This document shows positions 21,664-60,950 of a stretch of 64,000 nt of DNA, one piece after another. Each line of letters begins with the position of its first letter. Positions within the stretch are counted from its first letter, which is position 1. Origin of the DNA: Styela clava (lineage: Eukaryota; Chordata; Ascidiacea; Stolidobranchia; Styelidae); NCBI RefSeq assembly GCF_964204865.1, contig NC_135256.1, positions 19,187,703 to 19,251,702 of the forward strand. The letters are read 5' to 3'. Made by a program: the position numbers and the translations under genes. The notes below the pieces were generated by a model that searched no databases, had not been told where the DNA came from, and saw only the letters and a list, made by a program, of their open reading frames with translations.

Positions 21664-21797
21664 TATGTGTATTATGAACAATATACATAAAACAACGACC
21701 GAGCGCTCTAAAGCTGTTGATAGAACCAGTTTTATGCGAGCCGGTGTCGATGATTAAACAATTTTGTTAATTTTTCTGCTATCAGATCGTTGTATTG

Positions 21798-22628: not shown

Positions 22629-23622
22629 TTACACCAACTGATGAAATATCATAACTCCGAGCCAAACGGCGATCCAAGCCGATGTGATCGTTTTTCTTTG
22701 ACTCCCTGCAATATAAATAAATTAAATGACTATAACAATTTGTAAAATTCAAGAATTTTGAATTTTATTCATTTTTGTATCAAAGCAAAAATAGTGTAAA
22801 AGTATATATTATATTATTACTATTAGATACTTGAGTTAAAACATTTGATCGCCTTACAGATATATCCCAGTTTATAACGGGTATGCTTCCAGAAACTATC
22901 AATAGTAACGATTTCGTTATACCCAGATGGGAAATATTGAAAACTAAAGCAATGTATATAGTTTTAGTGTCGATAATGTTTTCTGCTGGACAATAAATGT
23001 TAAACGGTCAATGAATGTTACGAAAGGAGGCTATTATATTTTAATAAAATAGCATTTTATATGCTCAGTCATTTTTATAGGGTTTGGTTATCGTTTACAG
23101 ATTCGAGTTCATACTCAATTCGCAATTTTAGGATCACCGGAATGAATAAAATTTTGTTCCGAACTGGTCAAACTGATTTTCGTATTTTGCGTAGAATGAC
23201 TTTTTCCCCGGATTGTCATTAGCCGAATTTGGAAAACAGAATAGGAAATCAAACAAATCAAGGTACTTTTTTCAAGTTTGCTTTGAATTTCACGAACTGG
23301 GCGCTCACTAACCGACCACCGACGTGATCACTTCATGACAGTTAGTCGTATCATTCACATTCTGCAAGAACGAAACTAATCGGTAAGAAGAAACAGTAAA
23401 CCCAGCTAGTATATGTATAGAAATTATGATAACAACTTACCGTTTCCACCATTATGATCATCATCATCAAATATCAAAACCAGGGCGTTCGAAATTGTTT
23501 GGGGAGAAGATTCTTTGGTGGTGACGGGAATCTCATCGTCGTCGTCATCGTCGTTAGCACGATTATTCATACCGCTTTTTGCTGAGTTAGCTCGAATAAT
23601 GGGGTCGTGCTTTACAATTGAT
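22629..23622 (-). other. Gene 1 exons 15-16: acidic linker and C-terminal membrane segment
   Basis: Exon 15 encodes a linker with a run of aspartates (NDDDDDDEIP), then SSPQTISNALVLIFDDDD. The 77-nt exon 16 encodes SQRKTITSAWIAVWLGVMIF and ends HQLV-stop: a hydrophobic segment with almost nothing after it. This is the expected propeptide and membrane anchor of a ZP precursor with no cytoplasmic domain. Confidence 0.8.
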
Positions 23623-26600
23623 CTGTTAATTTACATTAGGTTCTTGAGTATATTATGTGACTGCACACAAATTATTTAGGAATATTGATTTTTAGATTGA
23701 AAGCATAAAATATTAGTTGTGATGACAATTCCTCATTAGATTTCGCGAATCTTCCCAGCCACTGGAAATGATTACTGTCATATTAGCTGGAAATACAAAA
23801 CAAAAAATCGTTTTCTTTTCAAGCGTTGTTATAACTATGATCAAAAAAATCAGATGAATACTTCTATCTTCAAAGAAGCACAAAAAATGAAATAGCACAC
23901 CGACATGTTGTTGCCGTATTACAGCAGCGTATATAGCAAGGGAACGAGTTAATGTGGAAGATGTAGTTGATTGCAAAACTATCTAAATACTAACAATAGA
24001 TTCAAAATATATAACATGACAGCCGCAACAGATTATGAATACTATCTATATAACACACCAGCGACTATAGGGCAAGCCACACAAAAAACAGTCACAACAA
24101 AACATTTCTTATTGTATCTCTTATTGTAAGCACAATGCAAGTACTGAAATGGCGTATTCATCATCAAGCCGTTCACAAGGTAAGAGTGCTTTAATAGTAT
24201 ATATTTCTGTTGATGACAGTTGATGGAACATTACTGGCTGAACTGAATGAGTACCATTTTTCAGAAGTCGTCACAGGAAAATAACAACGCCCGGCAAGGA
24301 CAAACAAAAAGAAAAGGCACAGCATTCACTGAAACGTGAAAATTAGTGCATATACCTTTTGTCTCTGAATGTTGAAGATACGCATCCTTGATAACATCTC
24401 GTAGAATTTGATAAATCACACAGAAGTACAGAACACTGAAAACGAACACGATAATATTTTTGACTGTGTTAACCTATGGAACAAAAGAAGCACACTGACA
24501 GTCTATTTATTTCTCGAATCATACAAACCTGTATATAAACTGCTGCATCTTCTTTCGAAGCAAGTAGTTTGTCTGCAAATTGAAACGCTTGTATGCTGAA
24601 TCTGTTTTCTAGAGGATTAGTTGATGTATATTCTTCCATAGTAGGATCTTCAAGGCAACTGGGTAAAAAAACATAGCAAATATGCGTAACATTATAAGAT
24701 AGAAACAACTTGATACCTGACTTTTATTCTCAATCAAATCCAACCAAATGGCTGATTTTTACACATTTTCGCAAAAATTGAATATTTGTTTTTGAGGGGA
24801 ATACATTTAAACTCTTTCTCTCAGTAAGAATACAAAATAGATTATGTTTTTTTTCTTTCACCAACAAGCGAACGGTTTGGTAGATCCATTTTTCCTTTAC
24901 TAGCTTATGTATGAGGCCCCTAATATGGAATTGTTTGAATATGTGCATTTATTAAATTAAAATTTAGGGTAATCAAAAATTTACCCAGCTGATATAAATG
25001 GATATTGTAAAGTTGTTGCAGTTATCGTCTCGGTCGACAACGCCACGCACTCTTCCGTAAACAAAGTCAAATCGGCCCGCCCAACTGCTAGAAGTGCAAA
25101 GTATATGTCATCGTTGATGGAAACTTCTACTGGATATTCAGCTGGACTATAAGGTGTCTGAAATGAGAGAATATGATAGGACATTATCTGATGGGCAGAA
25201 TCCGAAATCTCATAAATGACGTTCTTAGTTAAATCTTTAAAAACGGGCTTAATCTCAATGATATTAGAGTTACCCGTTGGTTCGGATTCTTGTCCATCAT
25301 TCGCGATTTAAGAGACAAATAAATTCACAAATCCATTTTACCTTGTTCTGGTTCTTATGACTTAAACGTCTAATCATAATCAAACAAGAAACGTTCAACA
25401 AAGAATTAATATGAAGCTTACCATGAAACTTTCTGTACGGTAAATATCAAACGAAAACACAAATGTTCCCATTCCTTCAATAGAAACCTCGTTCTGTACA
25501 TTATCACCGGTAATTGGAACTTCCGGTACAAAAGATCCGGTTAAATTTGATGTTGCTGGTAAAGTACAAACAACTGATATCTGTACCCATTCACCTCTCG
25601 TTATGACAGAGCTGGATCCAGAATAATCTCCCTTATAGACGAAAATGTCGGTTCGGTATTGGATACCCGCGGCACTCGACTGCAAAAGGAGATTTTCATT
25701 ACAAAGACAAACTCGACAAATTTTTGCTAAAGGTATTGCGACAGATTGTCAGCTTTAATTAGATAATGCTGCTCCAAATTTCATTCAATAAGCATCCAGG
25801 AATATATATGCATACGTGGATTAAGGCATGAATGAACATGACCAGTGGCAGAATTCGAAGAATTTTTTTCATTTCTGTTTTTGGAACGTCGTAATAATCA
25901 GTTAACTTGATCTTGTTTCTTAAAGCTACGAATAAGTTCGGCATAGTTTTGTAAAATGAGGAAACTTGTTATGGGACTCCTGTAGTATGCGAACCAAGAT
26001 GGCGGACACCGGAACGTAGTATGTGTACCAGTTTAGGGTTGGGTCATAATTTTATTCTAATTTTCCTTATTTTAGTTCTATTACGAGTTCGGCCAAGTGA
26101 CTCCCGTAGTATTTGTACCTGAAAGTATGGCTTAACCCTAACCTGGTACACATACTACGTTCCGGTGTACGCCATCTTGGTTCACATTCACATACTACGG
26201 TAGTATCCTTGTTATTAGTGAGTTCGATACAATAGAGAACTTAAAATGTTGAATTTTATCAATGGATATGAATGTCTTTGTCTACTTTAAAAATTGTTCT
26301 TCTATATAAAGATTGCCGGCAGCACTGGTGATTTTAAAACCAAACTTCAAGCTGAATTGAAACGCACAAGACTCGTTATTGCTGAAAAATATGACTTCAC
26401 GATATGAAGAATACACTTTGAATGAGTTTATCTAAAGGTTTTAATTGGGGTAATCGCCGAAGTGAATTAATTCTCTATCGACTGTTAGGTTTCATTCCCG
26501 CTTAGTTTAATTAACCTCAGTTGTCATCCCGCATTGATCACTGGCCAATGAGAGATGCTGTTGGGAAGTTCCTCCGGTTGACTGACATTCTGAATTTAGA

Positions 26601-29600
26601 TTATTGTGTTCTCCAGCGAATATAACTTCTTCAGATGCACAGTTTGCAATGCTAATATTCATTGTGTGGCCGTCACATGCAACCGTAGAATTGGCTGTGG
26701 AGAAAATAAAAGATATAGCGTATAACTTATCCTTATTAGTTTCCATTATTATCTCTCTCATATGCGGCTCCGAATCTCAATGTTAAGTGATCTTGCAACA
26801 CAGATTCAACGGTACTCCGGTAGTATCTGTACCAGGTTAGGATCAGGTCATAATTTTATTCCGATTTTCCTTATTTTAATCATATTACAAGTTCGGGGAC
26901 AGTCTGTGTTATCCAAGTAAATATCCCCTTGCCCATAGGTTTCAGTCCCTTTACCCAACTCGATGTAAAATAGACCAACAATATTTTTATATACAATATT
27001 TTGCCCATCAAGACTGGCGGGCCATGGAAGTATGAAGTGAAAGTTACATTTTATGGACAATATTTACAGTGTTACAAAAGCAAAAGTGGAAACCGATAAG
27101 CCTCATGCCAAAACACAATTTTATCGCAATCCTAACAAAATTCCTTGAGCCATCTTTTGCAAAAACAGAAAAATTTGGTTTTAGTTTGGTTGTGACAGCA
27201 TCAGGCGGGACATATTGAATTACTTAATGGGTCGGATTTGGCCCGCGGGCCGTAGTTTGCCCACGTCTTCTCTGGATCAATGCTCAAATATATGAAAACG
27301 ACGTGACTCCAATGAATACCCACCCATGCTCCCCTATGCGATCTACTCTGTTATCTGCAAATGCAAATGATTCGAGTTGCAAATCAAGTATAATCAGCGT
27401 AGTAGTGATACATGGGTACCATCTGTTTGTCGAGTAGATACCTAAATAGTCCGGCGCACTTCCACGTGGTGGTGCAATATGTGCAGAAATGGCATCATTT
27501 TGAGTAAACATAGAGACCTCAGGACTCTGACAATATTTGAAAATGAAAAATCACAAATCTACTCTAAGATGAATCTTGGAGTAGTGCTGAGTAATATCCG
27601 CTTTATCAAGTTTTGGGGTACCCACACGAAATAAAAATAAAATGGGTTGTCGCCTAGTTTGTTATTGATCCTTATTTTAAAAGAATAAATATACAGAGTA
27701 AACTATGACTGTAATAATTACAGCTGTAAAGTTAATTGTGTTGTAGCTTGATTTTTTCAAATATCAAACTGTCTTAAGGGTGATTTCAATCAGATCGGTT
27801 ATTGGATTCGAAGTGGACCTTTGAACCGTTTTGGGATTACCTATCGATCTTGATCAGTGAGTATGTTGATATGTATTTGTCTGTTTGTCTGTTAGATACA
27901 TGCGATATCTCACGAAAGCGAGGTTGAATCTGCTCCAATGCATTCATCATATCTCGGACCTGAAGCCTATTGATTTCGGATGACTAATGTCGTATAATTA
28001 GCGAGTTATTAATCAATTAGTGATGAAGAGATCTATGAAGAGATTTTTGCAAAGCGAGTGAACGTGTATGACCTAGATTTTTGAGGCGAGAGATCGCATG
28101 TGCTGAGCGTGTATGGCTGTATGCGATGCGCAAGTTTCCATCGGAAAGTTCCCACGCTATTGAATCAGACAGAGCGAAGGATACACGCTGCTAGATTGAT
28201 AAGTCCGCGATCTCTGATCGATATCTCGTTATGTTGTTCTTGTTAGTATTCTTCGTTTTGTTGTTGTTGTTGTTGTAAAAAAATTGATTTTTTCTTTAAC
28301 GACTGTATCAATCGCTTTGAATTTTTTTGTGGTTGAAAATTGTTGTTTTTGCTAGAAGGCTATTAATTTCATTTGTTTCTAAATTTCTTATGAATTTCAT
28401 TCACGAGAACGCCGTTTTAATCCGCTAAGCGTGACGGCCTACTACAAAACCTTCGTTTATCGATGAGATACTGTATACAAGCTACGGTGAGGTGATGTGA
28501 AGGGTAAGGTACTGCAAGTAAAAAAAAATATTACTACAATTGTGAGACGAATCATTTGGTATTTTTATTCAAACCGAGATTGGGCGTATGAATCATCATC
28601 GTCACAGGACCTGGGAATCGTAGGACGGCTCGGCTACTGGTACCGGTACTCGTTAGGTACGATGAAATATTTTCGTAAATTTTGAGCAAAATATTTCGTT
28701 TTGGCCTTTGTGCCATGTATATTTGAGCATTGCTCTCTTGTTCAGTTTATATATCCATAAGTATGAAACTATTTGAAAATGATTTAATCTACTTACGGAG
28801 ACAAGTTTTTTCGTTTTCGTGAAGCGACCAACATTCTTGCTTGCAGCTGCAGGAATGCGAGTATGTGCCAGCTATACAATCGTCACTGCATCCACCATTA
28901 TCAACATCGCATTGATCAATTGCTATTTGTCAAAATAAGAATACGGTCCGATAGAGAATGTGTATATAAATATATTTATATTAGGCTCCTTCGTAGTTCG
29001 AGAATCTAAATCTTTAGATCATCTAAGCTTACACGTGAATAATAAAATAAAAATCGAAAAAATAGTCGGTATTGGCAGCATATTGAACAAACCAAACAAA
29101 AATATTTACCTGTTACTTCAATGGTGAAGCATCTTTGTTCTGCTCGTAGCCTGTAACAGAGTATTGATTGAAATGACATTCATAGGCGATTCTTATTTTT
29201 AGTAATAAAATCCAACTTTACCCTCCAGAATCGACGGCGTAGTAACAAACTGTGTGAATTCCTGATTGCTTGGAAGTTGGATTCCAAATCATGCTAGATG
29301 CATGTAAATCGCTTCCAAGATAAACTATGCCAGTCTGATATAAACCAACTGGCCCAATGACAATAAACTGTGTTATGCTGGAAAAAATGTTTTGAATGTT
29401 AGCGCGTTAGAATAAATAATCAAGATGGAAGTACACATCGGAGAAGTTCTCTGCACATCTACTTGTTAAAATTCGACGTACTTACTTGTAGATTAGCCTG
29501 GATTATGATTTGTATATCTTGACGGAAAATTAGCACATTTTGAAGCTGTTTTATATTAAAAATGTTGAGTTTACTTGTGTACTGCTATAATTCAATAAAT

Positions 29601-32418
29601 TTAATAATATTACAAAGGCTAAAAAACAGGGTTAAAAATGCAGCTTCACCTTCCCCCTGAAACACTCGGATACGCATATAGGGTCTCGTTGAAGGTATCA
29701 GTTTCAGATATTACAAAAATTTCTCCGTCCTGAATGGCATACGATGGATAAGTTGGATTCACGTTGCATGACGATGCGGATGAAACTAAAAATAAATTAT
29801 TTTTCTAATTGATATACTGGGGTGAATATGTGTTGAAAATCTTCACATAAAAAAACATACTGTCTATGAGAAACTGCAATGGAATTGTACTCAACACATC
29901 CAAAGGTGTGCGCTCTCCACTTCCATCAACAGTTATAGTTTTTTGTGGATGGTCCTCCAACATTAAAGCAATTGCAGCTAGGTAGATTCCACCTCCCCCG
30001 TTATATTGAAGAGTGCAAGTTTCCTCGTAAAAGAAGATATATATATAGTAAGCGACGCAGTACTGTAGCTTCACTAAAGAATGGTTTCGCTCCGCACAAC
30101 TTGTAGCAGTCGCATCGCAAGGGTCAATTATATCATTCTTCTAATCTCGATATGATCAGGCTCACGCTTCCCGCCACTTAATACAATTGTCACGACTGAA
30201 TTTTGATTTTCATTTCAATTGAATTTCAGTAATTCATTTTAAACTATAAATTACTTTATGGTGTAGGGAGTACATAAGGATAGTTAATATGTATTTTAAT
30301 GTTTATTACCATGTATTGTTAATAGTGCATGTTATTCGCCTAAAACAAGATCGTTGCTCCAATTCATTTCCTTAATGATATTTTTTACTCGCACAGTGTT
30401 GCTCGTCTTTATTGTTCTTTGTTAGTTAGAAATTCAGTTTCAACACATATACTGGCGTTAAAGATTTAAGTGTATTTTGATAGCTGTATTCGGATTGGAT
30501 TGTACATCTTTACAATATACAAACATTTGGCATTCAATATATTTTGTGCTTATCGACTTCTGAGGAGTTCAGATGGGAGTTACACTCTTTTGTTACACTA
30601 TTGAACGGATGTCAAATAACATGTGAGTGCAGACACACAGATTGGGCCAATCTCCCTCATAATGGAAAGACTAAAAAATATACCTCTATCAATGAAATGT
30701 AAGGAAAAGATCCACAAACTCCGCCGCATTCATTTGCGCTGATCGCATATCTGCAGGTAACCTTATCGTTGTCATCGTCAACAGCATGGATAACAATATC
30801 ACTGGCACAACCCAATTGAAGTCTGATAAAAGAAATTGATTTTATCAATAATCGACGTAAATAGTACTAAATAAGAATAAGTTATTTTTCTTGAGATTAG
30901 TATATAAGGATATCTAGAATAAGACATTTTCAATGCAAACGACTAAAAACGTTTTTTTTATTTTTTACACCTAAAAAATACGAAAGGAGAGCAAAACTTG
31001 TTAGTGGAGATTATGGAAATATGGTCCAATATGACGGCCACACAAACAGACTGATTTCTTCAAAATAGGCAAAATCCAACCCCACATGCCAAGCATATAC
31101 GCGACAATAACCTAGGTATATAGTATTGGCAAATATACTAAGAACATGGTTGAGATCTTGCTCTGAATCTGCGTTTACATTACATACGTAAAAAAGCTAG
31201 CGCAATGCGTATATTGCTCAAACTATTTTCGAGGTTCATAAGTAATATCATTAAAATAAAATAAAATATATATCTGTTACCTCACCACTGGTGCGCTGAG
31301 AGTTCTTGGTGACGTATTCACCTTACCGGTATCGTTTCTAATTCCGACATCTATGCCTAGGAGGGGAACGGCCCATCTGCCCCCAGCTCCGCCATACAAG
31401 CCCCCGATCCAGGCATTGCCCTCAAATCTGCCACAGGAGACAAATTTTATGAGAAAAAAATTGTTTTCAAAATTCAACTTAAATAAATGTTGTTTATATT
31501 GTTAAATGAAACTTTAAAACTTTTCGAGTTCTGATAACAACACGCAACTATTAAAAATTAACAAGACTATTTATAAATATAGTATGACACGAACTCATAG
31601 TTTAGTTTACAACAATAGTTCTTGAACTTCAAAGCACCATCGTCACCGCACAGCACTCTATAAAACAACAACGCCTCCAATCAATACAAAAAAGGCTGAG
31701 TTGCAGAAAAAAATTATTTACAAAGAAAGAACGTATAGCCTACTTCAGAGCTATACAATCATCACACCAAGGCCATTGAGCAAACATTTTACTTGTATCA
31801 ATGCTTACGTAATATCGAAGGTCGATGAGGCGGTGATATTGGTAAGGAAGCTATTATAACCGTACGCCCAGTTTTCCGCAATATCATAAGTGGTGCATTT
31901 AATAGCTGTAGAATGAGGGAAATCGGAGCTCGACGCTCCATCAAGTACCCAATTTCCATTACCACCGTATCCTTCGTTCTGGTAAAAAATCGTGTTGTCA
32001 TCGCACCTTATAGAATCAGAATCTCGTCGCCAACCAAGACGAAAACTAATTTCCATCTTCAAAACAAAAGAAAATAATAGGAATAGTAAAATTTTCGAAA
32101 ATTAGTATCGACAATTAAATTAACATCTAAAGCTACGAGGTTTAGCTAGCGAACTAATATCGTCACATAATTAGACAGACACCAAATGTCCAAACTCAAA
32201 CATCTCATAATTTGAATGGCGAAAGTTAGTCTGCAGCAATTTCTAAACCAATATTTCTGTTACTAAATATAACTTGTAATAAACTCAATTTTTACCTCGT
32301 TTGTGTTCCCGGTTGACCTGATGTGTTTCCATGATACCGTTCCACCTCGAAAATGCGAAGCATTAGCTACCATGAGCGTGGAAAATAAAAAAACGCAGAA
32401 TTGAATGCAATAAAGCAT
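22629..32418 (-). CDS. ZP/EGF-domain membrane protein, gene 1 (complete, 16 exons)
   Basis: Coding exons in transcript order: 32296-32418, 31809-32056, 31281-31427, 30684-30822, 29861-30023, 29650-29785, 29222-29377, 29110-29150, 28797-28922, 26516-26694, 25422-25679, 24985-25157, 24529-24658, 24356-24435, 23441-23622, 22629-22705. All junctions are GT-AG and the phases close to 2358 nt, giving 785 residues. Order: signal peptide (about 1-20), HFRGGT module (about 21-219), middle module (220-384), EGF (385-426), ZP domain (about 430-697), furin site RDKR, acidic linker, C-terminal membrane segment. ZP proteins polymerise into egg coats and other extracellular matrices after furin cleavage; in ascidians the vitelline coat is built from such proteins. 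An egg-coat or epithelial matrix role is an inference. I know predicted animal proteins with a similar N-terminus but no characterised name. Transposons lie in introns 9 and 10. Confidence 0.88.
24356..26694 (-). other. Gene 1 exons 10-14: ZP domain
   Basis: ZP-N: exon 10 (VACDGHTMNISIANC ... NSEC ... QCGMTTE) and exon 11 (SSAAGIQY ... VITRGEWVQISVVCTLP), the pattern 'C...C...CG...I-Y...I-x-R...C'. ZP-C: exon 12 (DIYFALLAV ... LTLFTEECVA), exon 13 (GCLEDPTM ... RFSIQAFQFA ... AAVYIQ) and exon 14 (CSVLLCDLSNTTRCYQGC). The last block is the characteristic cysteine cluster at the end of ZP-C. It ends FRDKR, matching the R-x-K/R-R furin consensus found at this place in secreted ZP proteins. Confidence 0.9.
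25965..26215. mobile_element. MITE of 235 bp in intron 10 of ZP gene 1
   Basis: The element is 25973-26207. Long inverted arms carry 'gtagtatg', 'aaccaagatggcg', 'acaccggaacgtagtatgtg' and 'taccag.ttagggtt'. An 8-bp direct repeat cttgttat flanks it (25965-25972 and 26208-26215). It has no coding capacity. A half copy sits at about 26812-26900 and a shorter relative at 16977-17066. Confidence 0.8.
26812..26900. mobile_element. Half copy of the 235-bp MITE
   Basis: 'ggtactccggtagtatctgtaccaggttagg ... ataattttattc.gattttccttatttta ... acaagttcgg' matches the left half of the element at 25973. The right arm is missing. It lies in intron 9 of ZP gene 1. Confidence 0.6.
27190..27330. mobile_element. 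Transposon fragments in intron 9 of ZP gene 1
   Basis: At 27225-27270, 'ttggcccgcgggccgtagtt' followed by 'tgcccacgtctt' is the GC-rich end of a hAT-like element. At 27278-27330, 'caatgctcaaatatatg ... cgacgtgactc' matches the end of the Helentron-like family seen at 38127. Both are fragments. Confidence 0.5.
27800..28741 (+). mobile_element. Helentron-like repeat copy in intron 9 of ZP gene 1
   Basis: The right end 'GAGCATTGCTCTCTTGT' (to 28741) contains a GAGCA/TGCTC hairpin and matches the ends at 33120, 38127 and about 62533. Inside, 'tcgctttgaa', 'gtggttgaaaat', 'gctagaaggctatta' and a GTT-repeat tract (28256-28277) follow the order of the 38127-39443 copy. The left boundary is not defined; part of 27800-28200 may be another repeat. 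Confidence 0.55.
28797..28922 (-). other. Gene 1 exon 9: EGF-like domain
   Basis: The exon encodes DQCDVDNGGCSDDC followed by HSCSCKQECWSL and EKTC, the spacing of a calcium-binding-type EGF domain ('D-x-C...NGGC...C...C-x-C...C'). One additional cysteine (QEC; LNC in genes 2 and 3) makes seven, so one may pair outside the module. It lies directly before the ZP domain, the usual place for EGF modules in ZP proteins. Confidence 0.85.
29110..30023 (-). other. Gene 1 exons 5-8: middle extracellular module
   Basis: It starts with ETCTLQYNGGGGIYLAAIAL and PLQFLID (exon 5). Next come SSCNVNPTYPSYAIQDGE (exon 6), TQFIVIGPVGLYQTG ... SGIHTVCYYAVD (exon 7) and LRAEQRCFTIEVT (exon 8). The alternation of beta-strand-like segments and the ending 'VCYYAVD ... 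RCFTIEVT' resemble an immunoglobulin- or cadherin-like sandwich, but this is inference. Exon 8 is only 41 nt. Confidence 0.65.
30684..32418 (-). other. Gene 1 exons 1-4: signal peptide and HFRGGT N-terminal module
   Basis: Exon 1 encodes MLYCIQFCVFLFSTLMVANA, a clear signal peptide, followed directly by SHFRGGTVSWK. Exon 2 has FRLGWRRDSD, a pair of cysteines (RCDD and IKCTTY) and ENWAYGYNSF. Exon 3 is Gly/Trp-rich (AWIGGLYGGAGGRWAVPLLG) and exon 4 has DDDNDKVTCRYA and ECGGVCGSFPY. Gene 3 keeps all of these motifs at roughly two-thirds identity. This extracellular module matches no named domain I can assign with confidence. Confidence 0.75.
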
Positions 32419-39443: not shown

Positions 39444-39444
39444 A

Positions 39445-39521
39445 TTACTCCAATCGGTGGAAAATAATGACTCCGAGGAAAAATGCGATCCACGCCGTTG
39501 TGACTGCTTTTCTTTTACTTC
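39445..39521 (-). CDS. Orphan ZP terminal exon A
   Basis: A 77-nt exon copy with the same length, phase and acceptor (ttgcag) as exon 16 of the ZP genes. It encodes SKRKAVTTAWIAFFLGVIIF and ends HRLE-stop. No exon 15 or other ZP exon lies between it and orphan exon B upstream. It could serve as an alternative last exon for a transcript from the right, or be a non-functional by-product of duplication. Confidence 0.7.
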
Positions 39522-49592: not shown

Positions 49593-50438
49593 GCCAACAT
49601 GGGCATAACCTAGAACCATTGAAAAAAGGTCTATCAAACCACAGTATAATTGCCGCTTCATTGATGATCGTTTCCTTTTTTTATTACATGGCAAAGGAAA
49701 GCATTTATAATTTGTTACCCATGCACTGGGGTGGCAAATCACTGGTCCACGGGTCACGAAAATAACCCACCGTGTGATCTGCCAAGTCACGAATTAACCC
49801 CAAAAACATACTCAACTTTGAATCTATTCTTTTGAACAAATTCCTAGATATAGCAAGGAAGATGACTAAATAACAAGACAATAACGATTAAGAATTTTTC
49901 TGTGTTTAAGCAAAGCAAATATTTGGCGCAAGTTATCTAGCACTTTTCACATCCGCCTATCCTAAATTATGATTAAATGTGCTTAGCTCTATTTTGGTAA
50001 GCTGTCACGCGACACTTTGTTTAAACAACTTATCACAGTATTCAAATGAGTAAAAAACTTTTTAAGTTTTATGTGTTGAGTGTTTGAACTGAAAGATCGA
50101 GAAAGATCAATTTAAGCAGTGGGTAGTAAGTATGGCCAAGCCATAGACTTGCGTAAGTGTATTTTTCCATCCAAGAAATAGCAATGTACAATCACTCCCA
50201 TGGATGGCAGACCTCTTGATTAATGGATCAAAAACTTTTTTTGTGTGTTAAAGTAAGACTGTAGGTAATGTATATTTGAAGTATGTCTGCATCATTTTGA
50301 AAATTGCTGTTGCATCTTTGCCTCAAGTCTTAATCCTTGATTTTGCGTAATTTTGTGCTTTACACATACTGCAATTATGTCATAGCCAAAATTCGTGCTA
50401 CTCAATTATACGAAATTCATGTTTGATAACATGAGTTC

Positions 50439-52128
50439 ACATGCATATAGAATGCCGAAAAACTTTTACACTGCTACGGCACGATTTTTTAAAATAGTTT
50501 AGAAAGTTTTCCACTCTGAGATATTTTCGAACGGCGTTCGTCCGCTTTATATTCATAATCATCCAATTCCAGTTTTCTGCAATTGTTCTTTTTCAGTTTT
50601 CAACAGCGTTTATTCAAGTTTGTAAAATTTCGTTTTTTAAACGGCTTTTTAGATACGAGGAAAAAGAATATACTGCATCAGGTTCTCGTATATCCCTAAA
50701 AACATTCCCTTTGTTCACTCAAATGTTTGTGTATATTTTGCATAAATTCGTGACTCGGCGGGACTTACATTCAGAAATTCAAATCGTCTTTTAATACTAT
50801 TCTATTCTATACCTACATACTCTAATATGTGTATTTTAAAATTATAAAAAGTCATTTCTGATGACGTGATAAACAAAAAGCACTCGTGTTATCATATCAT
50901 AACTGAACGTTACCTCTTTCAACAATTCGTTAAAGTCATTAAGAACCTCAAGTTTGCCAATTGTTTGAAAAAGAACCCTTTCAGATCTCTCTTACCAGCA
51001 ACAAACATTTTTATCGTGCGACCTTGATGATAAAACTTTTGTCAGATGAAAGAAAAATCCCACAGCATGCAAACTTATTTGCGGAGAGTAATGATAAATA
51101 GACATCTCATGATTCACGTTCCAAAACAACCAACCACTTGTCTATTCGGATTACGTGAGGCTCATCGTTTGGTTCAAATGATTTACGGTCAGATACCATG
51201 TCTTAATAATCTTCTGCTGAAAAAGCATTAAAACTTTTTCTAACAGTTTCTATCAGGTAAATATTAATAAAATATTCAAGTTTGCTTGTTTATTTAAATG
51301 ATAATGACTACAGGGCAAATTTTAATCAGTAACGTGGACGTGCTGACGTGAATGAAATAACCATCAGTGACAGCACATTTTTGCTGACGTTGTGGTAACT
51401 GAGAACGCTCTTCCTATAGTCCGAAAGAATTGTTGCGAAGTTCTTTATTTTATTCAAACTCGCTGATATGATTCTAGCCAACTATATATTCTAGAAAATG
51501 CAGTACTTTCTCAAGGCAGAGACCTATATCAGCTGTGATTTTAACAGTGTCCACTGACCAGGATTATGGTTGCCACAATACTCTCTTCGGGGCCATTAGG
51601 AGAAGCCCAAATATTTGCCCCCGGAACGGAATCATACAGTGTTGGGGAGACGCAAGTCACCTTTAATCAGCCCAAAACACACCAAAGATGAATAACTTAA
51701 AGTATATATATCAGCCAGTCTGTTTCAGGTATTTTATTGTCACTAAAATTACCTAATTTGATTGGTTTTAAATGCCACAATAACTACGTAAATTATGTGC
51801 TCAATACGATATAATTATAATATTAATTACTCCAATCGGTGGAAAATAATAACTCCGAGCAAAAATGCGATCCACGCCGTTGTGACTGCTTTTCTTTTAC
51901 TTCCTGCAATAAATAAATGAAATAATTAGATGTTTGTTTATTTTGACCAACCTCAAACTATAAGGTATTTTAAGTGGTCTCTACTATGAATATCTCAGCT
52001 AAGCAAAGCTGCACAAACAAATTGTTGCGAGGGAGAATGTGCTCTGGACCCTTGTGGGTCCACGAATCCCACTTGATTCAAATGTTAAATCCCGGCAATT
52101 TATGAGACCAAATTGGTATGTATATTGC
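50439..52128. repeat. Repeat unit D
   Basis: The single unit in large copy 2. It lacks both transposons and has a deletion near 51538 ('cagctgtga' joined to 'ttttaacagtgtcc') relative to A-C. It ends with terminal exon 51827-51903 of ZP gene 3. Confidence 0.85.
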
Positions 52129-55100
52129 TAGCAACTATCAGCAGCAGTAATTGCATCAGTATAACTTATGAATCAATGAATACGGGATAAAAATAATTTT
52201 ACTTTTGAATGGTTCCTGTTATATTCTGGAAGGATGTAAATAAATTCGCAAAAGGTTATACGGCATTAAATTTAAACAAAACAACAAATTTACAAGCTTC
52301 ATTTTTTAATATATAGAAGATTGTTAGGTTATTATTATTGAATTTTTTATATTCGATTTTGATGATAACGAGGCCGGAATGAACTTTCTTTAAGCAAAGA
52401 GAAGTTGTCAAACTGAGTAAGGGACTTTTCTTATCAGGAACTGGTATCAAAATAAAAAAAATTAATTTCGGAACGGGATTGCGAGTCGGGCCAAATCAAA
52501 TTTCGTCCGGTAGTCAGTATGCTTGTATTTAGAAAACATGGAACAGAAAAGCCAATCAAACGCATAATCAAATTTAATACCATTTGATATTTCACAATTA
52601 TGCTCATCTAAATTTCACTTACTGAATGAAACAACCTATTAAAATTAAATATTTTATGGCGTTAGTTCTATTGTTATTAGTTGATCTGTACTAAAAACGA
52701 AACTAATCTGTACTGAGTAATCGTAAGCCAAAAGCAGACAGCCAAATGCAAAACAGGTTTCTCACCGTTTCCGCCGTCGTTATCATTACCACCATCATCA
52801 TCAAATATCAAAACCAGCGCGTTTGAAATGGTTTGCGGAGAAGATTCTTTGGTGGTGAGAGGAATCTCATCGTCGTCGTCATCCTCGACATCTTGGTTAT
52901 CACTATCATTCTTTGCTAAGTTAGCTCTAACAATAGAATCGTGCTGTAGAATTGATCTGTCAATATTATAATGGGTATATAAGTTATATATTATGTAATA
53001 CAGTAATTTGTTTTGTAACTTTAAGTTCCACATATTTTTCATGTATATAATAATTATTGAAATATTAGGAATAGATTCAAATAGATCAAATGAAGGCAAC
53101 AATAAATTATGGAATATTAAATGACTTATTAGCGATGTCTCATGACGAGAGCATGTCAGAACGAAAACATACACAACAACGCATTGTTGATGTATTATAT
53201 GACGAAGAACATTGCAAGTACTGAAATGGCGTACCCAGTAGCAAAGCCGTTCACAAAATAAAACATTTACCTGTTGAAGACAGCTGATAGAATATTACTG
53301 GCCTAACAGAATGGAGCGCAACAGTCGTTAAATAAAAATGACATCGCCTGACGAACAACAGGAACAACAATGCATTTATTGAAACGTGAAAACTAGTGAC
53401 ATACCTTTTGTCTCTGAATGTTGAAGATACGCATCCTTGATAACATCTCGTAGTATTTGATAAATCACACAGAAGTACAGAACACTGAAAAAAAAAATGA
53501 CTGTGTTTAATCTAGGGAACAAAAAAGGTACAAGAACAGTTCCTTTTTTAAATTTCACAAACCTGTATATAAACTGCTGCATCTTCCTTCGAAGCAAGTA
53601 GTTTGTCTGCAAATTGAAACGCTTGTATGCTGAATCTGTTTTCAAGAGGATTATCTGATGAATATTTTTCCATCGTAGGATCCTCGAGACATCTGAGAAA
53701 ATAATAGCCCACTATGTATGACGGAAACAGCTTAGTGCCTGTGTTATAAGTTTCATTCAATATAATAAATTTCAACCAAACGGCTGAATTTACAATATTT
53801 GCATAATAATTATTGACTGGTAATGAAATAAAAACTTCTTCCATCATTACTTGAATGATGAACCGCCTCAACCTTCAAATGATATGATCTTTGCATGACA
53901 TAATATAAACCTTGTTCAGATATGTGCACTAAATGAACATTCACGAAATATATAAACAAATTACCCAGCTGATATAAAGGGATATTCTAAAGTTGTTGGA
54001 GTTATCGTCTCGGTTGAAAACGCTACGCATTCTTCTGTGAACAAAGTCAAATCGCCCCGCCCAACCGCTTGAAGTGCAAAGTATATGTCATCATCGATAG
54101 AAACTTCTACTGGGTATTCAGCTGGACTATAGGCTGTCTGAAAAATATGAAAGAAAACGTTTGCTATGTCTTCGTGTAGAATTTGCAAGCTAAAAAATTG
54201 CGTTTGTATAATAATCTTGAGAATGGGACTCAATCTACGCTACATCATAATCAAGTACCAGCCTTGCACTCGTGTGTTCGGGTGTCTGTTGTCATTCGCA
54301 ACTAAAACGTTGACCGTCTGTGGGTTCCTCTGACTCTCACAATAACTGATATGAATTTCTTTAACATATTTTTACAAAACTTACCGTGAAACTTTCTGTT
54401 CGGTAAATATCAAACGAAAACACAAATGTTCCCATTCCTTCAATAGAAACCTCATTTTGTACATTATCACCAGTAATCGGAACTTCAGGTACAAAAGATC
54501 CGGTTAAATTTGATGATGCTGGTAAAGTACAAACAACTGATATCTGTACCCATTCACCTCTCGTTATGACAGAGCTGGATCCAGCAGTATCTTCTTTGTA
54601 GACATAAATGACGGTTGCATATTGGATGCCAGCGGCACTGGACTGCCAACGCAAATAGACTTTTATACTTCAAAGAAATGTTTCGAAGCCAGATTAAAAA
54701 TTATTGCACGGCTTCAGCAGTAAATAAAAAATTGTATATTTTTCGATTGATTTTTTACAACAACCAATCGATATAGAATATAGATAGACTAAAGCAAAGA
54801 TATAACTCTTAGTGTCTAGATGGGAAATGCTTCATCTATATATGTTCCGGTCCCAGTACGCTTTCACGAAGGAAATACTCAGGCTTGCAATATATGAAAA
54901 CTCCATGTTTATTGTCAAAAAATTCTTTTGAATTTGCGTAAAGAACATATAGACGTCACATCAGTTTTACCTCAGTTGTCATTCCGCATTGTCCACTGGT
55001 CAATGAAAGATGCTGTTGGGAAGCTCCTCTGGTTGACTGACATTCTGAATTTAGATTATTGTGTTCTCCAGCAAATATAACTTCTTCCGATGCACAGTTT

Positions 55101-58100
55101 GCAATACTGATGTTCGTTGTAAGACCGTCACATTCAACCGTCGAGAAGGCTGTAAAAACGACAAAATGTCCAATACGATTTGACGCCACGCACTCGTTAC
55201 CACATATTCCCGAACACTTGTAGCATGTGACTGACTTATTGCCGATAGGCGAAAATTTTGGTTGGGAGGAAGATCTAAACAGCAAACCTACCGCTGTACT
55301 TGAATTTTGTTTTCGCATGCTTGAACAAATTGGTTTAAACTAGGAGACCGTTACATATGGGGCAAATCTTCAGGTATATTAGATCGCTTTAAATATCACA
55401 CACCAGAGATAGAGTAGCAAGAGAACGCTATTCTGTCATTTGCTTTCTCACATTAGTTAACAATAACGCAAACGATGTGTGAGTGAACAAAACTAATATA
55501 AGTAGGATGTGGTTACATTATACAGCCTATAGATTATTCGAAGATATTATAAAATCACTTACGAAGACAAGTTCTGTCATTGTCGTGTATTGACCAACAA
55601 TTTAAATCGCATAAGCAGCTGTGCGAGTTGGTATCAGTTATGCAAGTGTCACTGCACCCACCGTTGTCGACATCGCATGGATCAATATTTACTGAATTAA
55701 AAAGAGCAATGAAATATCAAAAGAGTACAATACTAAAATTTTGTTTACCTACTGTTACTGGAGATATATTTTTACCAAAAACACTCACCAGTTACAGTTA
55801 TAGTGAAACATCTTTGTTCAGAATGTAGCCTGAAAGAGTGTAAATAGAAAACTCGTTAGAATCAAATATGTATTTTGGCGTTATATCAAAAGGATCTATT
55901 TTACCCTTTAGAATCCACTGCGTAGTAGCAAACTGTGTGATCGCCTGATTGATCGGATGTTGCATCCCAAATCATGTTCGACGAAAAAAGATCGTTTCCA
56001 TTATCAGTTATCTCGGACTGGTGCAACCCCAGAGGCCCAATGACAACAAACTGTGTTATGCTGAATAGAGATTTTTGAAGATTATAAAGAGACGATTCTA
56101 ATGATTCCATTAAAATATTGGACATCGAAAGTAGTCTATTTCATTTCAAGCATTGTGTAAACGGTCATATTACTCGTGTTTGCTATTAAATTATGTCGTA
56201 TTAGCTATGCCCTATTGGAACATTATTACATTGTTTTATTTATTTCTGAAGGACAATATCATCAAGCTTTTTGTCAGTCTAATGAATTAGTCAGAATATA
56301 TAAAAGTAGTTACATTTTTAACCAACCCATATACCAAACTTTAGAATTATTTTGTTCGAATCGAAAACATTACCTTCCTCCAGAAACGCTTGGGTACGCA
56401 TAGAGGGTCTCGTTGAACGTTTCGGTATCAGATATTACGAAAGTTTCTCCGTCTTGAATAGAATATGGTGGATACGTTGGGTTTATGTTGCAAGACGACG
56501 CCGATGATACTGAAAATCAAATTGTATATCAGTTCTAATATTATCATGATCAAGGTTGATAATATTAAAAAAATAAATCTTACTATCAATGATAAATTGT
56601 AGAGGAATTTTACTGAGCACATTTGACGTTGTGATGGTGCTTCCATCAACAGTTATTGTTTGTTTTGGATGATCCTCTAACATCAAAGCAATTGCGACCA
56701 AGTAGTATCCTCCACCTCCATTATACTCAAGTGTACAGGTTTTCTCAAAAACAAAACAAATGGTCTAAATTTACTTCGGCCAAATTGGATTACTTCAATG
56801 TATGGAAAATTGAGCTGAAATAAGAAGCAATACCACAAGTTACCAATAATGTCGCATATAGCTCGCCTGGTCGTAACTCAAACTTGACCATTTTGCAGAT
56901 GTACTTAAAACGATAAATAAGGAAAATTTCAAAAATGCATGCTTGTTCTAGCTAAAAAAAAGAATGGATTTATTCCTTCATAAAGGAAATCGGAAAGGAA
57001 TACAGCATCTCAAAAAATATATCTCAGAGCAATGCTCAAGAAGGAAAGATGCTGGTTTTTTGAATGATAAATTGAAGCAATCTTTCCGAAAATATCGAAA
57101 CCATGCCGCTTAAGTCTGTGACTTAAAAGGTACAACAAAAATCAACCGAATGGTGCAATCTTATGAACGACTGGCACAACAATAGAAAAACTTTCAGCCA
57201 GCTCATGTCGATTATAAACTGACCACCCTTGTGTACAAGCAAGTAATACATCCATATGTGAAACACAGTATGGATTTTTTAATTTAACTGCAAAAATTCA
57301 GTTCAGCCCGAATCTATACTACCGGTAGTTAGCATGGACGTGGCTTCTCCTTTGGACGATGAATCGTCTCCACAACGGCGATATATAAGACGTGCGACAC
57401 TATCTTTAGAATTGCAAAAAAAGACAGACGAGAAACACATTGTGTACTGTAGTATAATCAGCCAATCATTTCTTATAAACAACAACCATATATTTGACGA
57501 GAAATATTGTCTTGAAGGAAGAGTAATGGAAGAGTAAGCCAACATGGGCATAACCTAGAACCATTGAAAAAAGGACTATCAAACCACAGTATGATTGCCG
57601 CTTCATTGATGACCGTTTCCTTTTTTTATTACATGGCAAAGGAAAGCATTTATATCTTGTTACCCATGCACTGGGGTGGCAAATCACTGGTCCACGGGTC
57701 ACGAAAATAACCCACCGTGTGATCTGCCAAGTCACGAATTAACCCCAAAAACATACTCAAATTCAGTGATAAAATTGATGATAAACTCGGCTTTAATTCA
57801 AACCAACAACATACCATAGCAGTGGTTCTCAAACTTTTTAAGCCGCGCCCCCTTTTTTAGAGTTCTTATGGTCTGGCGCCCCACCTCAAAAACAACCAGC
57901 TAACAATAAGCAACAAATAACAGATAGTAAGGCGAAGGTATGTTTTATTCAACAAACACGTTGGAAATACGTGGATGGAATGTAAAGCGCAATAGCTCTC
58001 TACAATCTCTTAACAATAAAAACGTGTATATATCCAAAAGTAACGAGCAAGATCAAATCTAACAAATATTTTTATTTAGCTTCACGCCCCGTCAAAAAAT

Positions 58101-60950
58101 TGTCTACGCCCTCTTGTGGGGCCCGCCCCTTCGTTTACAAATCAATGTACTATAGTATTTCAGTATGCAGCTACTGGCAACAATACTGTTACAACGTTTA
58201 GGACATAACAAAACAATTGATCTATTCATTCCTTGCAAAGTTCCCTTACGGAGTTAGATGAACCAGAGGGGTCCGCAGAATGTTTTGGAGGTATACATGA
58301 ATTAGATACTACTTTGGAGTTCGTTTTTCACAGCGTTCAATGTCGTCAAACAACAAAATTGACTTCAATAAACGACCACGGATATCTAAAATAACAAAAC
58401 CTATCGAATAATATAATTCTCTCAGAGTAGAAATATTTTGAAACAATGAAAGATTTGTCGTATCATTATAAGTGTTTTTGTTGATTTGTATGCATTTGTA
58501 TGCGAACCTGTGTTTTGGCACGTGAGTTTCATAAAGTCAAATACGAGTTTTGACATAAATGCTGTACGCGTATGCTCAAAACTACAAAATACCTACCAAG
58601 GATATGACTCGCAGAAATAATGCAACAGCAAGTTTCGCAGTGAAGTAAACTGACTAAATATATATGGCCCACAGTCTTTTTATCCACATTTGTAACCCGT
58701 TAATTAACAGCGGTTCACTAAGGGTGCGCCGCTTTTGAATCACGTAGAATATTTGCCTCCTCTCTTGCTACGGTATCCTTGTATTTATTATACACATACT
58801 GGTTCACTAGCGCAAAAGCATAGTAGAAGACTAAGTAGGTTTTAATGACAATTCATTTTCTATTATTCTAATATTTTTTTTATTTTTTTATATCAATATC
58901 GTTGATCGGAGAACTATATGCAACTCGACAAATTTAGGACACTCCCTATGATGAGGTAGGTGATCTGCCTGCTTTATACAATGTACACGTGGAAGTCCAA
59001 AATCTCAAACTAGCAACGTCATATTCAGGCGAAATAGTACAAAATTACAGAATAATGTTTGTTAGTTGCATATTTGAGCTGGGGACAGCTGTTGTGTTGT
59101 TACAAGGAAAATGTAAACACAGAGCAAAGTACATACCTCTACTAAAGTAATATAAGGAAAACTTCCACATACATCTCCGCATTCGTCACTACCAGTGGCA
59201 TACCTGCACGTCACATCATCATTGTCATCGTCAAGAGCTTGGATTATTATGGTACTGGGGCATCCCAGCTGTAACCTTGAGGGAGAAGAATTCAAACCTC
59301 AATGAGTAGACATTGAACAATTTATTGATGTAACTCAAGCAGAAACATTTATTACCTTACTATTGGTGCATTGAGAGTTCTTGGTGGATTGTTAACATTC
59401 CCAGTATCGCTTCTAATTCCGAGGTCTATTCCTAGCAGACCAACAGACCAGCGACCGTTACTTCCACGATATAAACCACCAATCCAAGCACCGCTAGCAA
59501 AGCTGTAAATGATACAAAAATGGAGGCTAATACCATAGAAGAGCACAATTTTTAGAAAATAATTCAACGCAGTTTTCTCAAACATCCGATATCATCCATA
59601 GCACTCATAATAATTTATGAACTTAGTAACTGCTTGTCTTAAGTTACTGACATCTGCATGACAATTGTATTTTTTGCCATAATTGCTTTGACAGCAAGGA
59701 AGACGTCTTCAAAAACCATATGTTGAAATTGAATCAGTTTTGATGTAGAGAATGTGACAAAAAATCTAAACTTAAGATGTAACAACTATAATTGTTCATA
59801 ATGAGGCATATGAAAACTGCATTGTAACTTACATGATGTCAAAGTTCGATGACGATGTGATATTAGCGCGAAAGCTATTATAACCATACGCCCAATTTTC
59901 GTCAGGCTCATAAACAGTGCATTTGATTGCAGTAGAATGGGGGAAATCGTAACTAGATGCTCCATAAAGCGACCAACTTCCTCCATCATATGCTTCGACT
60001 TGACTTAAAATCATACCGTCGTCGCACACTGGATTATTGGAGTCTCTTCTCCAACCAAGACGATAATTCATTTCAATCTATGAAAATAAGGAGGATGGAG
60101 AATGAGGACTTAATTTATTTAGGTAAAGATATAATATATTAAGGCAGGGGTCGGGAACCTTTTTGGTCAAGAGAGCCATGAAAGGTACATATTTTCAATT
60201 GCATTTCCGCGCGAGCCATACAACAATTTTCATTACCTAATAATGTCTTGACTTTTTACTCAAAAGTCAACACATACAATGTCAATATATTTATTGCGAC
60301 TTTTGATGCTGCGTGTTGTCGCTCAGGGCCTCAAACGACTTCTCACATGCAGCACAAAGTGAAATCAACGATACTCATCACCTTTTCTTTTGAGCATCTC
60401 CGTAGTGCTTAAAAAATTAGATTCGCTGGTCCAACCTGAATATTACAAATAAACAGTAGGCCTACAAACTGACGGAATACCTTCCTTTATCGTCCCGCGA
60501 CTATATCGCTTCGTAATATGTTCCAGAATCCCCTAGTTTGTCACAATGTCTGTCTGGTATTCTCTCGCATAATATAGACATGTCCAGGGCGCGAGTTCTC
60601 AAACGTATTGGCAAATTTTCTACCAAATTTGGCTATAAAAATGTTTGAAATCTGGTAACAATAGTAAGCTCAAAGTCTTAGAATATTTAATTTTTTTGGG
60701 AGCCATGGGTTCCCGTACTTCCTTCCCGTATACAATATTCTGTCTCCGCAATTTAGGTTGCGATCTATGCGTCTACCTCCAATCATGGTTTCCTGAAAAT
60801 AGAGCAAAATCTATGAAAATTAATTCTAACCTCATGATCATTTCCATTTGAGCTTATGAGCTTCCACGATGCTGTACCTCCACGAAAATGTGAACCTCCA
60901 ACGACCGGGAGCGTTGTGCAAAGAATGGCGCACAAGATACCAGAAAGCAT
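51827..60950 (-). CDS. ZP/EGF-domain membrane protein, gene 3 (complete, 16 exons)
   Basis: Coding exons in transcript order: 60831-60950, 59833-60077, 59356-59502, 59137-59275, 56584-56743, 56374-56509, 55905-56060, 55789-55829, 55563-55691, 54971-55149, 54385-54642, 53965-54137, 53563-53692, 53405-53484, 52766-52956, 51827-51903. All junctions are GT-AG; the phases close to 2361 nt, giving 786 residues. The start at 60950 gives MLSGILCAILCTTLPVVGG then SHFRGGTASWK; an in-frame ATG at 60968 would add six residues before the signal peptide. The domain order and furin motif RDKR are those of gene 1. EGF: DPCDVDNGGCSDTC ... HSCLCDLNC. Intron 4 spans about 2.4 kb because duplicated and unique sequence meet there. 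A matrix or egg-coat role is inferred from the ZP domain. Intron 1 holds a hAT-like element. Confidence 0.88.
52766..55149 (-). other. Gene 3 exons 10-15: ZP domain, furin site and acidic linker
   Basis: ZP-N: VECDGLTTNISIANC ... QCGMTTE, then SSAAGIQYATVIYVYKED ... VVCTLP. ZP-C: LTLFTEECVAFS, GCLEDPTMEKYSS and CSVLLCDLSNTTRCYQGC, ending FRDKR. The linker DVEDDDDDEIPLTTKESSPQ ends ALVLIFDDDG. Exon 11 is nearly identical to gene 1 even at silent positions, unlike exons 1-9. Confidence 0.85.
57334..57537 (+). CDS. Small plus-strand ORF in intron 4 of gene 3, unknown
   Basis: 67 codons (MDVASPLDDESSPQRRYIRR...), counterpart of 49383-49592. It runs antisense to the ZP gene. No domain is recognised, and its conservation may only reflect the recent duplication. 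Confidence 0.2.
   Translation: MDVASPLDDESSPQRRYIRRATLSLELQKKTDEKHIVYCSIISQSFLINNNHIFDEKYCLEGRVMEE
57820..58131. mobile_element. hAT-like element, right end missing or degraded
   Basis: It begins CAGTGGTTCTCAAACTTTTT followed by 'aagccgcgccccc', a common hAT terminus. C-rich blocks 'ggcgccccacc' and 'cacgccccgtc ... tggggcccgcccctt' follow. The expected inverted right terminus is not found. It lies in intron 4 of ZP gene 3, just outside the duplication boundary. Confidence 0.6.
59137..60950 (-). other. Gene 3 exons 1-4: HFRGGT N-terminal module
   Basis: Counterpart of gene 1 exons 1-4, with identical phases and the conserved cores RLGWRRDSN, DFPHSTAIKCT, ENWAYGYNSF, WIGGLY, GRW, RTLNAPIVR, DDDNDDVTCRYA and CGDVCGSFPY. 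It lies outside the large tandem duplication (which ends near 57750), so the locus has only one set of these exons for genes 2 and 3. Confidence 0.75.
60145..60725. mobile_element. hAT-like element in intron 1 of ZP gene 3
   Basis: The left end is CAGGGGTCGGGAACCTTTTT with 'gagagccatgaaagg'. The degenerate right end, 'gggagccatgggttcccgta' near 60698-60717, reads as its inverted partner. No clear 8-bp duplication was found, so the exact right end is uncertain. Confidence 0.6.

What the first reader, a model, noticed from the sequence alone, without database searches (positions are those of the whole stretch)
22629..60950. Minus-strand cluster of ZP/EGF genes with an unassigned 'HFRGGT' N-terminal module
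Two complete 16-exon genes and a damaged third share an unusual order: signal peptide, HFRGGT/GWRRDS module, middle beta-rich module, one EGF, ZP domain, furin site, Asp-rich linker, C-terminal membrane helix. The ZP and EGF parts are standard. I cannot match the ~200-residue N-terminal module to a named domain. Exon phases are preserved in both genes, so the architecture is real. In an ascidian such genes could encode vitelline-coat or other self/non-self matrix proteins; that role is inference.
Basis: partly seen in the sequence, partly recalled or inferred. Interest (0 to 1): 0.75.

Follow-up and report, generated by a model that had tools for sequence, protein, structure and literature searches.

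The report
Sea-squirt relatives of amphioxus egg-coat protein
Two intact genes and one broken copy in a sea squirt encode probable egg-coat proteins related to a major amphioxus egg-coat protein, and their puzzling front part looks like an ancient adhesive-type module that standard domain libraries do not yet recognise in them.

Summary
On the minus strand are two complete 16-exon genes (A 60950-51827, 786 aa; C 32418-22629, 785 aa) with GT/AG junctions and identical phases, and a broken copy B (48790-43797) lacking exons 1-4. The source is Styela clava: its database proteins match A and C and join the N-terminal module to the ZP domain.

The N-terminal and "middle" modules are one ~360-residue unit, also found in amphioxus, a crinoid, bivalves, rotifers, a fish and one apparently bacterial protein. 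No Pfam model reaches its cut-off there in A or C. The apparently bacterial relative passes Pfam cut-offs for the first two domains of Sib (integrin-beta-like) adhesion receptors; three animal relatives match Sib domains weakly, at matching places. I read it as a divergent Sib-type ectodomain.

The best functional lead is B. belcheri ZP1: same module, ZP domain, furin-type site and hydrophobic helix, reported as a major egg-coat protein (PMC3543715). Egg-coat function is likely by homology; self/non-self recognition is unsupported. Between A and C the ZP half looks homogenised, the module half does not.

The parts
51827..60950 (-). Gene A: 16 exons, 786 aa (60950-60831, 60077-59833, 59502-59356, 59275-59137, 56743-56584, 56509-56374, 56060-55905, 55829-55789, 55691-55563, 55149-54971, 54642-54385, 54137-53965, 53692-53563, 53484-53405, 52956-52766, 51903-51827)
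   Evidence: Open reading through GT/AG junctions; matches Styela clava P0002 with 11 substitutions, P0002 lacking exon 9.
56374..60950 (-). Gene A exons 1-6: signal-peptide-like start plus about the first four-fifths of the HFRGGT/Sib-like module
   Evidence: model; profile A2 covers residues 20-381 of P0002.
55789..56060 (-). Gene A exons 7-8: rest of the module
   Evidence: model and profile limits.
55563..55691 (-). Gene A exon 9: single EGF-like domain, phase 1-1, skipped in database isoform P0002
   Evidence: (FXa_inhibition, below cut-off).
53405..55149 (-). Gene A exons 10-14: ZP region, ending in RDKR (furin-type site)
   Evidence: Pfam PF00100 (ZP-C) E 2.7e-23 on residues 554-685; ZP-N itself gave no Pfam hit.
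51827..52956 (-). Gene A exons 15-16: Asp-rich linker and C-terminal hydrophobic helix AVTTAWIAFLLGVIIFHRL
22629..32418 (-). Gene C: 16 exons, 785 aa (32418-32296, 32056-31809, 31427-31281, 30822-30684, 30023-29861, 29785-29650, 29377-29222, 29150-29110, 28922-28797, 26694-26516, 25679-25422, 25157-24985, 24658-24529, 24435-24356, 23622-23441, 22705-22629)
   Evidence: Pfam PF00100 E 3.4e-24; matches Styela clava P0001.
43797..48790 (-). Gene B: broken copy, exons 5-16 only, with +5 nt in exon 5 and +4 nt in exon 10 relative to A
   Evidence: the Styela records P0005 and P0017 also begin inside exon 5.
49818..51826 (-). 3' flank of gene A running into gene B intron-4 sequence: likely unequal-exchange junction near 49818
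   Evidence: 46882-49818 matches 54852-57763 (94.6%); 49817-51422 matches 35349-36922 (90.9%).
41940..42016 (-). Orphan copy of exon 16, preceded by ATGCAG
39445..39521 (-). Second orphan copy of exon 16, preceded by TTGCAG

Best explanation
Genes A and C encode secreted, membrane-anchored precursors of an egg-coat (vitelline-coat) filament protein in Styela clava, the ascidian counterpart of amphioxus BbZP1. The precursor is cut at RDKR, losing the Asp-rich linker and membrane helix; the ZP domain then polymerises into filaments, and the N-terminal module, probably three beta domains in a row, projects as an adhesive face that contacts sperm, follicle cells or neighbouring coat proteins, with an optional EGF spacer between. 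The module is a divergent animal form of the ectodomain of Sib-type adhesion receptors. Shown here: gene structure, sequence homologies, processing motifs, duplication. Inferred: egg-coat location in Styela (from the amphioxus homologue), cleavage and polymerisation (from ZP biology), the fold and adhesive role of the module (from its Sib-type relatives).
For: P0019 ('Zona pellucida domain-containing protein 1', B. belcheri, 927 aa, the length the paper gives for BbZP1) aligns with A at 29.5% over 413 residues (E 3e-47) across the module and 24% over 324 residues (E 3e-11) across the ZP part; it has RKRR and a C-terminal hydrophobic stretch. PMC3543715 (abstract and passages) reports BbZP1 among three major egg-coat ZP proteins by mass spectrometry of coats, ovary qPCR, in situ hybridisation and immunostaining. 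P0004, an unnamed 788-aa relative (40% to A over 779 residues) with module, EGF-like part, ZP, RQKR and a hydrophobic stretch, lies on a 2749-bp contig, as a spliced transcript would (inference). Pfam ZP-C in A and C. Sib link: P0026, apparently bacterial, matches SIBA-E_N (E 4.3e-11) and Ig_SIBA-E_2nd (E 7.6e-9) above cut-off and the animal profile over its residues 75-342.
Against: No expression or proteomic data for Styela were seen. The module also occurs in proteins with no ZP domain (rotifer, bivalve, an adhesion GPCR), so it is not specific to egg coats. Rows with a ZP domain do not form one clade (4 label changes, at least 3 forced). No Sib-family model reaches its cut-off in A, in C, or in any of the 22 non-bacterial relatives scanned; BbZP1 itself shows no Sib hit at E up to 5. 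As an isolated N-terminal piece, P0026's second-domain score falls just below cut-off (26.6 against 27.8). No record named as Ciona appeared in three searches.
Confidence: 0.58

Rival explanations
1. The proteins build a somatic extracellular matrix or mucus filament (epidermis, tunic, gut or pharynx), as uromodulin does, and not the egg coat.
For: The database names the gene B record P0005 'uromodulin-like'; ZP proteins serve many tissues (general knowledge); skin and notochord show low BbZP expression, about 1/100 of ovary (PMC3543715, passage); the module occurs in non-ZP proteins.
Against: The closest characterised protein with the same module-ZP-furin-helix order is a major egg-coat component.
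Confidence: 0.27
2. The module is a self/non-self or species-specific sperm-recognition determinant that diversifies under selection.
For: Amino-acid differences between the window copies and the database copies are denser in exons 1-4 (10 of about 419 residues) than elsewhere (7 of about 1069), Fisher p 0.011 (split chosen after seeing the positions; one junction substitution and the 9 in one differently modelled stretch dropped).
Against: dN/dS between A and C is 0.16 in exons 1-9 (95% range 0.11-0.22), not higher than 0.19 (0.11-0.33) in exons 10-14. Only two haplotypes were compared and no synonymous changes were available. The ascidian self-sterility genes in PMC8849226 (passages) are of other families.
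Confidence: 0.07
3. The animal module is an unrelated Ig/cadherin-like array, and its likeness to Sib domains is only generic.
For: Sib hits in animal relatives are all below cut-off and few (3 of 22 at E below 0.05); the third domain also matches general families (Big_9 E 0.003 in P0006; He_PIG in P0026).
Against: The three hits are to three different Sib models at the matching positions: P0021 N-terminal domain 5-117 of 119, E 0.0013; P0018 second domain, E 0.042; P0009 third domain, E 0.0022. Reversed copies of those three gave no Sib hit. P0026 matches both families.
Confidence: 0.22
4. Gene B is a functioning short ZP gene rather than a broken copy.
For: Database records P0005 and P0017 of Styela model it as coding from a methionine in exon 5.
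Against: Exons 1-4, with the signal peptide, are missing, and exons 5 and 10 carry inserts of +5 and +4 nt in this window.
Confidence: 0.1

Closest known systems
BbZP1, egg-coat ZP protein of Branchiostoma belcheri (P0019; PMC3543715)
   Same: N-terminal HFRGGT module, ZP-N and ZP-C domain, furin-type site, C-terminal hydrophobic helix; significant similarity in both halves.
   Different: Has an extra segment between module and ZP and no EGF; A and C have an EGF exon there and end directly after the helix, without a tail. The paper's abstract reports no significant similarity between BbZPs and urochordate ZP proteins; which urochordate proteins it compared I did not read in full.
Sib proteins A-E of Dictyostelium (Pfam PF24907, PF24908, PF24910; equation of the Pfam names with Sib is from their descriptions)
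   Same: Probable shared N-terminal ectodomain, by way of P0026 and weak hits in three animal relatives.
   Different: SibA has a VWA domain, a glycine-rich membrane helix and a talin-binding tail with NPXY motifs (PMC9197732, PMC12686525, passages); A and C have none of these and carry a ZP domain instead.
CiVC57 and HrVC70, ascidian vitelline-coat ZP proteins (PMC8849226 and PMC3543715, passages)
   Same: ZP-domain egg-coat proteins; CiVC57 also has EGF-like repeats and a membrane helix.
   Different: CiVC57 has a von Willebrand domain and 24 EGF-like repeats; a module of the present kind is not mentioned in the passages read.

Membership tests
ZP-domain proteins | ZP-C domain (PF00100) above Pfam cut-off | tested here: met
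   A 83.0 bits, C 85.9 bits, cut-off 24.6.
ZP-domain proteins | ZP-N domain (PF23344) above cut-off | tested here: inconclusive
   No hit in A or C at E up to 1; exons 10-11 align with the ZP-N part of relatives, of which 3 of 13 hit at E up to 0.1.
ZP-domain proteins | Signal peptide, cleavage site after ZP-C, C-terminal hydrophobic segment | tested here: met
   Hydrophobic N- and C-termini and RDKR motif; no signal-peptide predictor was run and cleavage was not tested.
ZP-domain proteins | Polymerises into extracellular filaments | not testable with these tools
   Needs biochemistry.
Egg-coat ZP proteins of the BbZP1 type | Same module plus ZP order with similarity in both halves | tested here: met
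   E 3e-47 and 3e-11 for A, 4e-46 and 1e-8 for C.
Egg-coat ZP proteins of the BbZP1 type | Single common clade with BbZP1 among module proteins | tested here: inconclusive
   Deep forks open; ZP rows need 4 label changes, at least 3 forced.
Egg-coat ZP proteins of the BbZP1 type | Present in purified egg coat, made in oocytes | not testable with these tools
   Reported for BbZP1 only (PMC3543715).
Sib (integrin-beta-like A-E) proteins | SIBA-E_N, second and third Ig-like domains above cut-off in A or C | tested here: not met
   No hit in A or C at E up to 1; none above cut-off in the 22 non-bacterial relatives scanned.
Sib (integrin-beta-like A-E) proteins | Homology of the module to the Sib N-terminal domains | tested here: inconclusive
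   Transitive through P0026 with three weak hits at matching places.
Sib (integrin-beta-like A-E) proteins | VWA domain and talin-binding NPXY tail | tested here: not met
   No VWA hit in A or C; A ends in FHRLE and C in FHQLV directly after the hydrophobic helix, so there is no NPXY tail.
EGF family | EGF-type domain above Pfam cut-off | tested here: inconclusive
   FXa_inhibition E 0.0064 (A) and 0.0024 (C), below cut-off; factor X light chains from E 0.0054 for C.

The most novel reading that the evidence does not exclude
An adhesive ectodomain of the kind that amoebae carry on their Sib adhesion receptors, also found in an apparently bacterial protein, was joined to the ZP polymerisation domain in deuterostomes and became the outward face of the chordate egg coat; in Styela the polymerising ZP half of the paralogues is kept alike by gene conversion while the adhesive half is left to differ.
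Probability: 0.3. Interest if true: 0.72.

Novelty: new variant of a known kind. Interest (0 to 1): 0.5.

Why it matters
The 2012 amphioxus egg-coat study reported no significant similarity between its ZP proteins and those of urochordates; this gene family supplies one, so chordate egg coats may share an inherited component. It also points to an identity for a widespread animal module that Pfam does not mark in these proteins, and it offers candidates for the outward-facing part of an ascidian egg coat. If the Sib link is right, a pre-animal adhesion ectodomain was recruited to gamete contact.

Tried and rejected
Tried without yield: prokaryotic genome scans with the animal profile (68 pattern matches, none confirmed) and with a 334-residue piece of P0026 (43 matches, none confirmed); viral contigs (100 matches, none confirmed); plasmids with 230 of those 334 residues (no match); PDB by module profile (best E 0.36) and with the P0026 piece (best E 0.23); NCBIfam on five proteins (nothing significant in the module); Rfam (0) and tRNAs (0) in the window; the motif string HFRGGT in papers (0 papers); papers with 'Styela clava' and 'zona pellucida' (1, seen as a listing). 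Other paper searches gave listings only.

Rejected: (1) 'two separate modules', because 21 of the 26 proteins cover the profile end to end; the other five are P0005 and P0017 (gene B records, start late), P0007 (starts late), P0018 (starts late, diverged) and P0026 (in pieces). (2) Relaxed or positive selection as the cause of the module's lower conservation between A and C: synonymous difference is also far higher there (pS 0.61 in exons 1-9 against 0.23 in exons 10-14), and introns 11, 12 and 14 align better than a shuffled control while introns 1-4, 6, 8 and 9 do not (one shuffle each), which points to exchange of the 3' half. Exons 4 and 5 are saturated at synonymous sites, so dS there has no usable value. 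Exons 15-16 are intermediate (pS 0.41). (3) Exon-only, cDNA-mediated conversion, because introns 11, 12 and 14 are also more alike.
Full report
What is there. The minus strand between 60950 and 22629 holds two complete genes and one broken one. I rebuilt both complete genes by hand from the sequence: 16 exons each, every junction GT/AG, the running phase identical in both. A encodes 786 residues and C 785; the proteins share 77% identity over 758 aligned residues (A without exon 16).

Source. A search with residues 1-384 of C gave 14 proteins, four of them from Styela clava. P0002 (LOC120328850 isoform X2) aligns with my gene A over its 743 residues with 11 substitutions and exon 9 skipped; P0001 (LOC120328647) aligns with gene C with 16 substitutions, 9 of them in the stretch 311-328 where the two models differ, and starts 15 residues later. 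These are database predictions, not transcripts that I saw, but they join exons 1-4 to the ZP exons independently of my models. An unnamed relative of 788 residues, P0004, lies on a contig of 2749 bp, which for a gene this intron-rich suggests a spliced transcript (inference).

The module. Pfam finds only the ZP-C domain in A and C above cut-off. In the module no Pfam hit appears at E up to 1 and no significant PDB relative (best E 0.35, 0.36 by profile). It is nevertheless widespread. Three protein searches (the third scored only the 7993 candidates sharing most words) gave 26 distinct proteins: Styela (5 records), unnamed lgn, ena and jgi records (6), amphioxus (3), the crinoid Antedon (1), the bivalves Saccostrea, Mytilus and Mactra (3), rotifers (7; group recalled from the genus names) and the fish Poeciliopsis (1). 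With a profile of 12 module sequences (A2), 21 of the 26 cover it end to end (P0016 in two pieces); the other five are P0005, P0017, P0007, P0018 and P0026.

Its kinship. P0026 is a metagenome protein named 'VCBS repeat-containing protein', organism not given; I take it as bacterial from its many bacterial-type repeat domains. It begins with SHFRGGTISW after its signal-like start and aligns with the animal profile over residues 75-342 (67.5 bits) plus the first 25 positions (13.0 bits). It passes Pfam's cut-offs for SIBA-E_N (43.3 bits against 28.1) and Ig_SIBA-E_2nd (36.2 against 27.8), described as domains of integrin-beta-like proteins A-E. As an isolated N-terminal piece it keeps SIBA-E_N (46.4 bits) but its Ig_SIBA-E_2nd score is 26.6, just below cut-off. 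Among 22 non-bacterial relatives scanned (P0005, P0017 and P0020 were not; E limits ranged from 0.1 to 10 by call), three give Sib hits below cut-off at E under 0.05, each to a different domain and at the matching place: P0021 SIBA-E_N 5-117 of 119 (E 0.0013), P0018 second domain (E 0.042), P0009 third domain (E 0.0022) (trimmed modules). One A2 member matched SIBA-E_N at E 0.27 (which one the answer does not say), and P0018 matched the third-domain model out of place at E 0.35. BbZP1, and the oyster P0006, showed no Sib hit. Reversed controls of the three gave none. P0006 carries the source name 'integrin beta-like protein C'. I infer a divergent Sib-type ectodomain; A and C themselves do not pass that test.

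Function. P0019, from the third search, is named 'Zona pellucida domain-containing protein 1' of Branchiostoma belcheri and has 927 residues, the length given for BbZP1 in PMC3543715 (abstract and passages). That paper finds BbZP1 in egg-coat extracts by mass spectrometry, expression highest in ovary, with in situ and antibody signals at oocytes, and notes a transmembrane domain and furin site but no LDLa or vWFA domain. Gene A matches it over the module (29.5% of 413 residues, E 3e-47) and the ZP region (24% of 324, E 3e-11), C likewise (E 4e-46 and 1e-8). The abstract states that BbZPs share no significant similarity with urochordate ZP proteins; this family is an exception. Egg-coat function in Styela is thus an inference from a homologue. 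The module tree does not place ZP-bearing rows in one clade (4 changes, at least 3 forced; P0003, with only the start of a ZP domain, was counted as without), so one or more fusions, or losses, remain open.

Mechanism. Likely steps: secretion; cleavage at RDKR; release of linker and helix; ZP polymerisation; display of the module. The motifs are seen, the steps are inferred. The EGF exon is a phase 1-1 cassette, missing in P0002 and P0005 and present in P0001 and P0017; according to the paper no BbZP has one. In amphioxus, crinoid and oyster a different segment stands in that place (read from the alignment).

Copy history. Between A and C synonymous difference is 0.61 per site in exons 1-9 (95% range 0.55-0.68), 0.23 in exons 10-14 (0.17-0.30) and 0.41 in exons 15-16 (0.27-0.56), while dN/dS is 0.16, 0.19 and 0.26 with overlapping ranges. 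Introns 11, 12 and 14 align clearly better than a shuffled control (0.58-0.66 against 0.43-0.50); introns 1-4, 6, 8 and 9 do not; introns 5, 7, 10, 13 and 15 are short or only slightly better (one shuffle each). The 3' half has therefore probably been exchanged or converted more recently than the 5' half. Gene B is nearly identical to A (94.6-98.1% DNA) but starts inside intron 4; its 5' edge (49818) adjoins 3'-flank sequence of the type that follows exon 16, as unequal exchange between intron 4 and the 3' flank would give. Two further exon-16 copies with acceptors sit in the flank repeats.

Polymorphism. Between window and database copies, amino-acid differences are denser in exons 1-4 (10 of about 419) than elsewhere (7 of about 1069; Fisher p 0.011), after dropping one junction substitution and the 9 in the differently modelled stretch. 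The split was chosen after seeing the positions; with two haplotypes and no synonymous data this is a lead only.

Limits. No record named as Ciona appeared in three searches, which is not proof of absence. Papers: PMC3543715 abstract and passages; PMC8849226, PMC9197732, PMC12686525 and PMC13361971 passages only; others only as search listings.

Noticed in passing
10538-13153 and 19273-21692 (+): A segmental duplication (about 82% identical) carries HSP20-type small heat-shock coding pieces in both copies (the 3' piece of the second copy was not scanned).
   Followed up: partly
5449-6639 (-): A long open frame of the Frag1/DRAM/Sfk1 family (PF10277, E 4.5e-34).
   Followed up: no
35349-44097: Tandem repeats of about 2 kb made of exon-16-plus-3'-flank sequence of the ZP genes, about 91-96% alike.
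   Followed up: partly
not in window (P0003, LOC120328786): A further Styela paralogue with the module and only the start of a ZP domain; its window matches are 33-63% identical, so no near-identical copy of it lies here.
   Followed up: no
not in window (P0008): The same module heads a mussel adhesion GPCR with GAIN and 7tm_2 domains, so it has been joined to several kinds of surface protein.
   Followed up: no
191-691 and 17696-18228: An inverted repeat of about 500 bases, 86% identical, with a shorter related piece at 17188-17377; possibly a mobile element.
   Followed up: no
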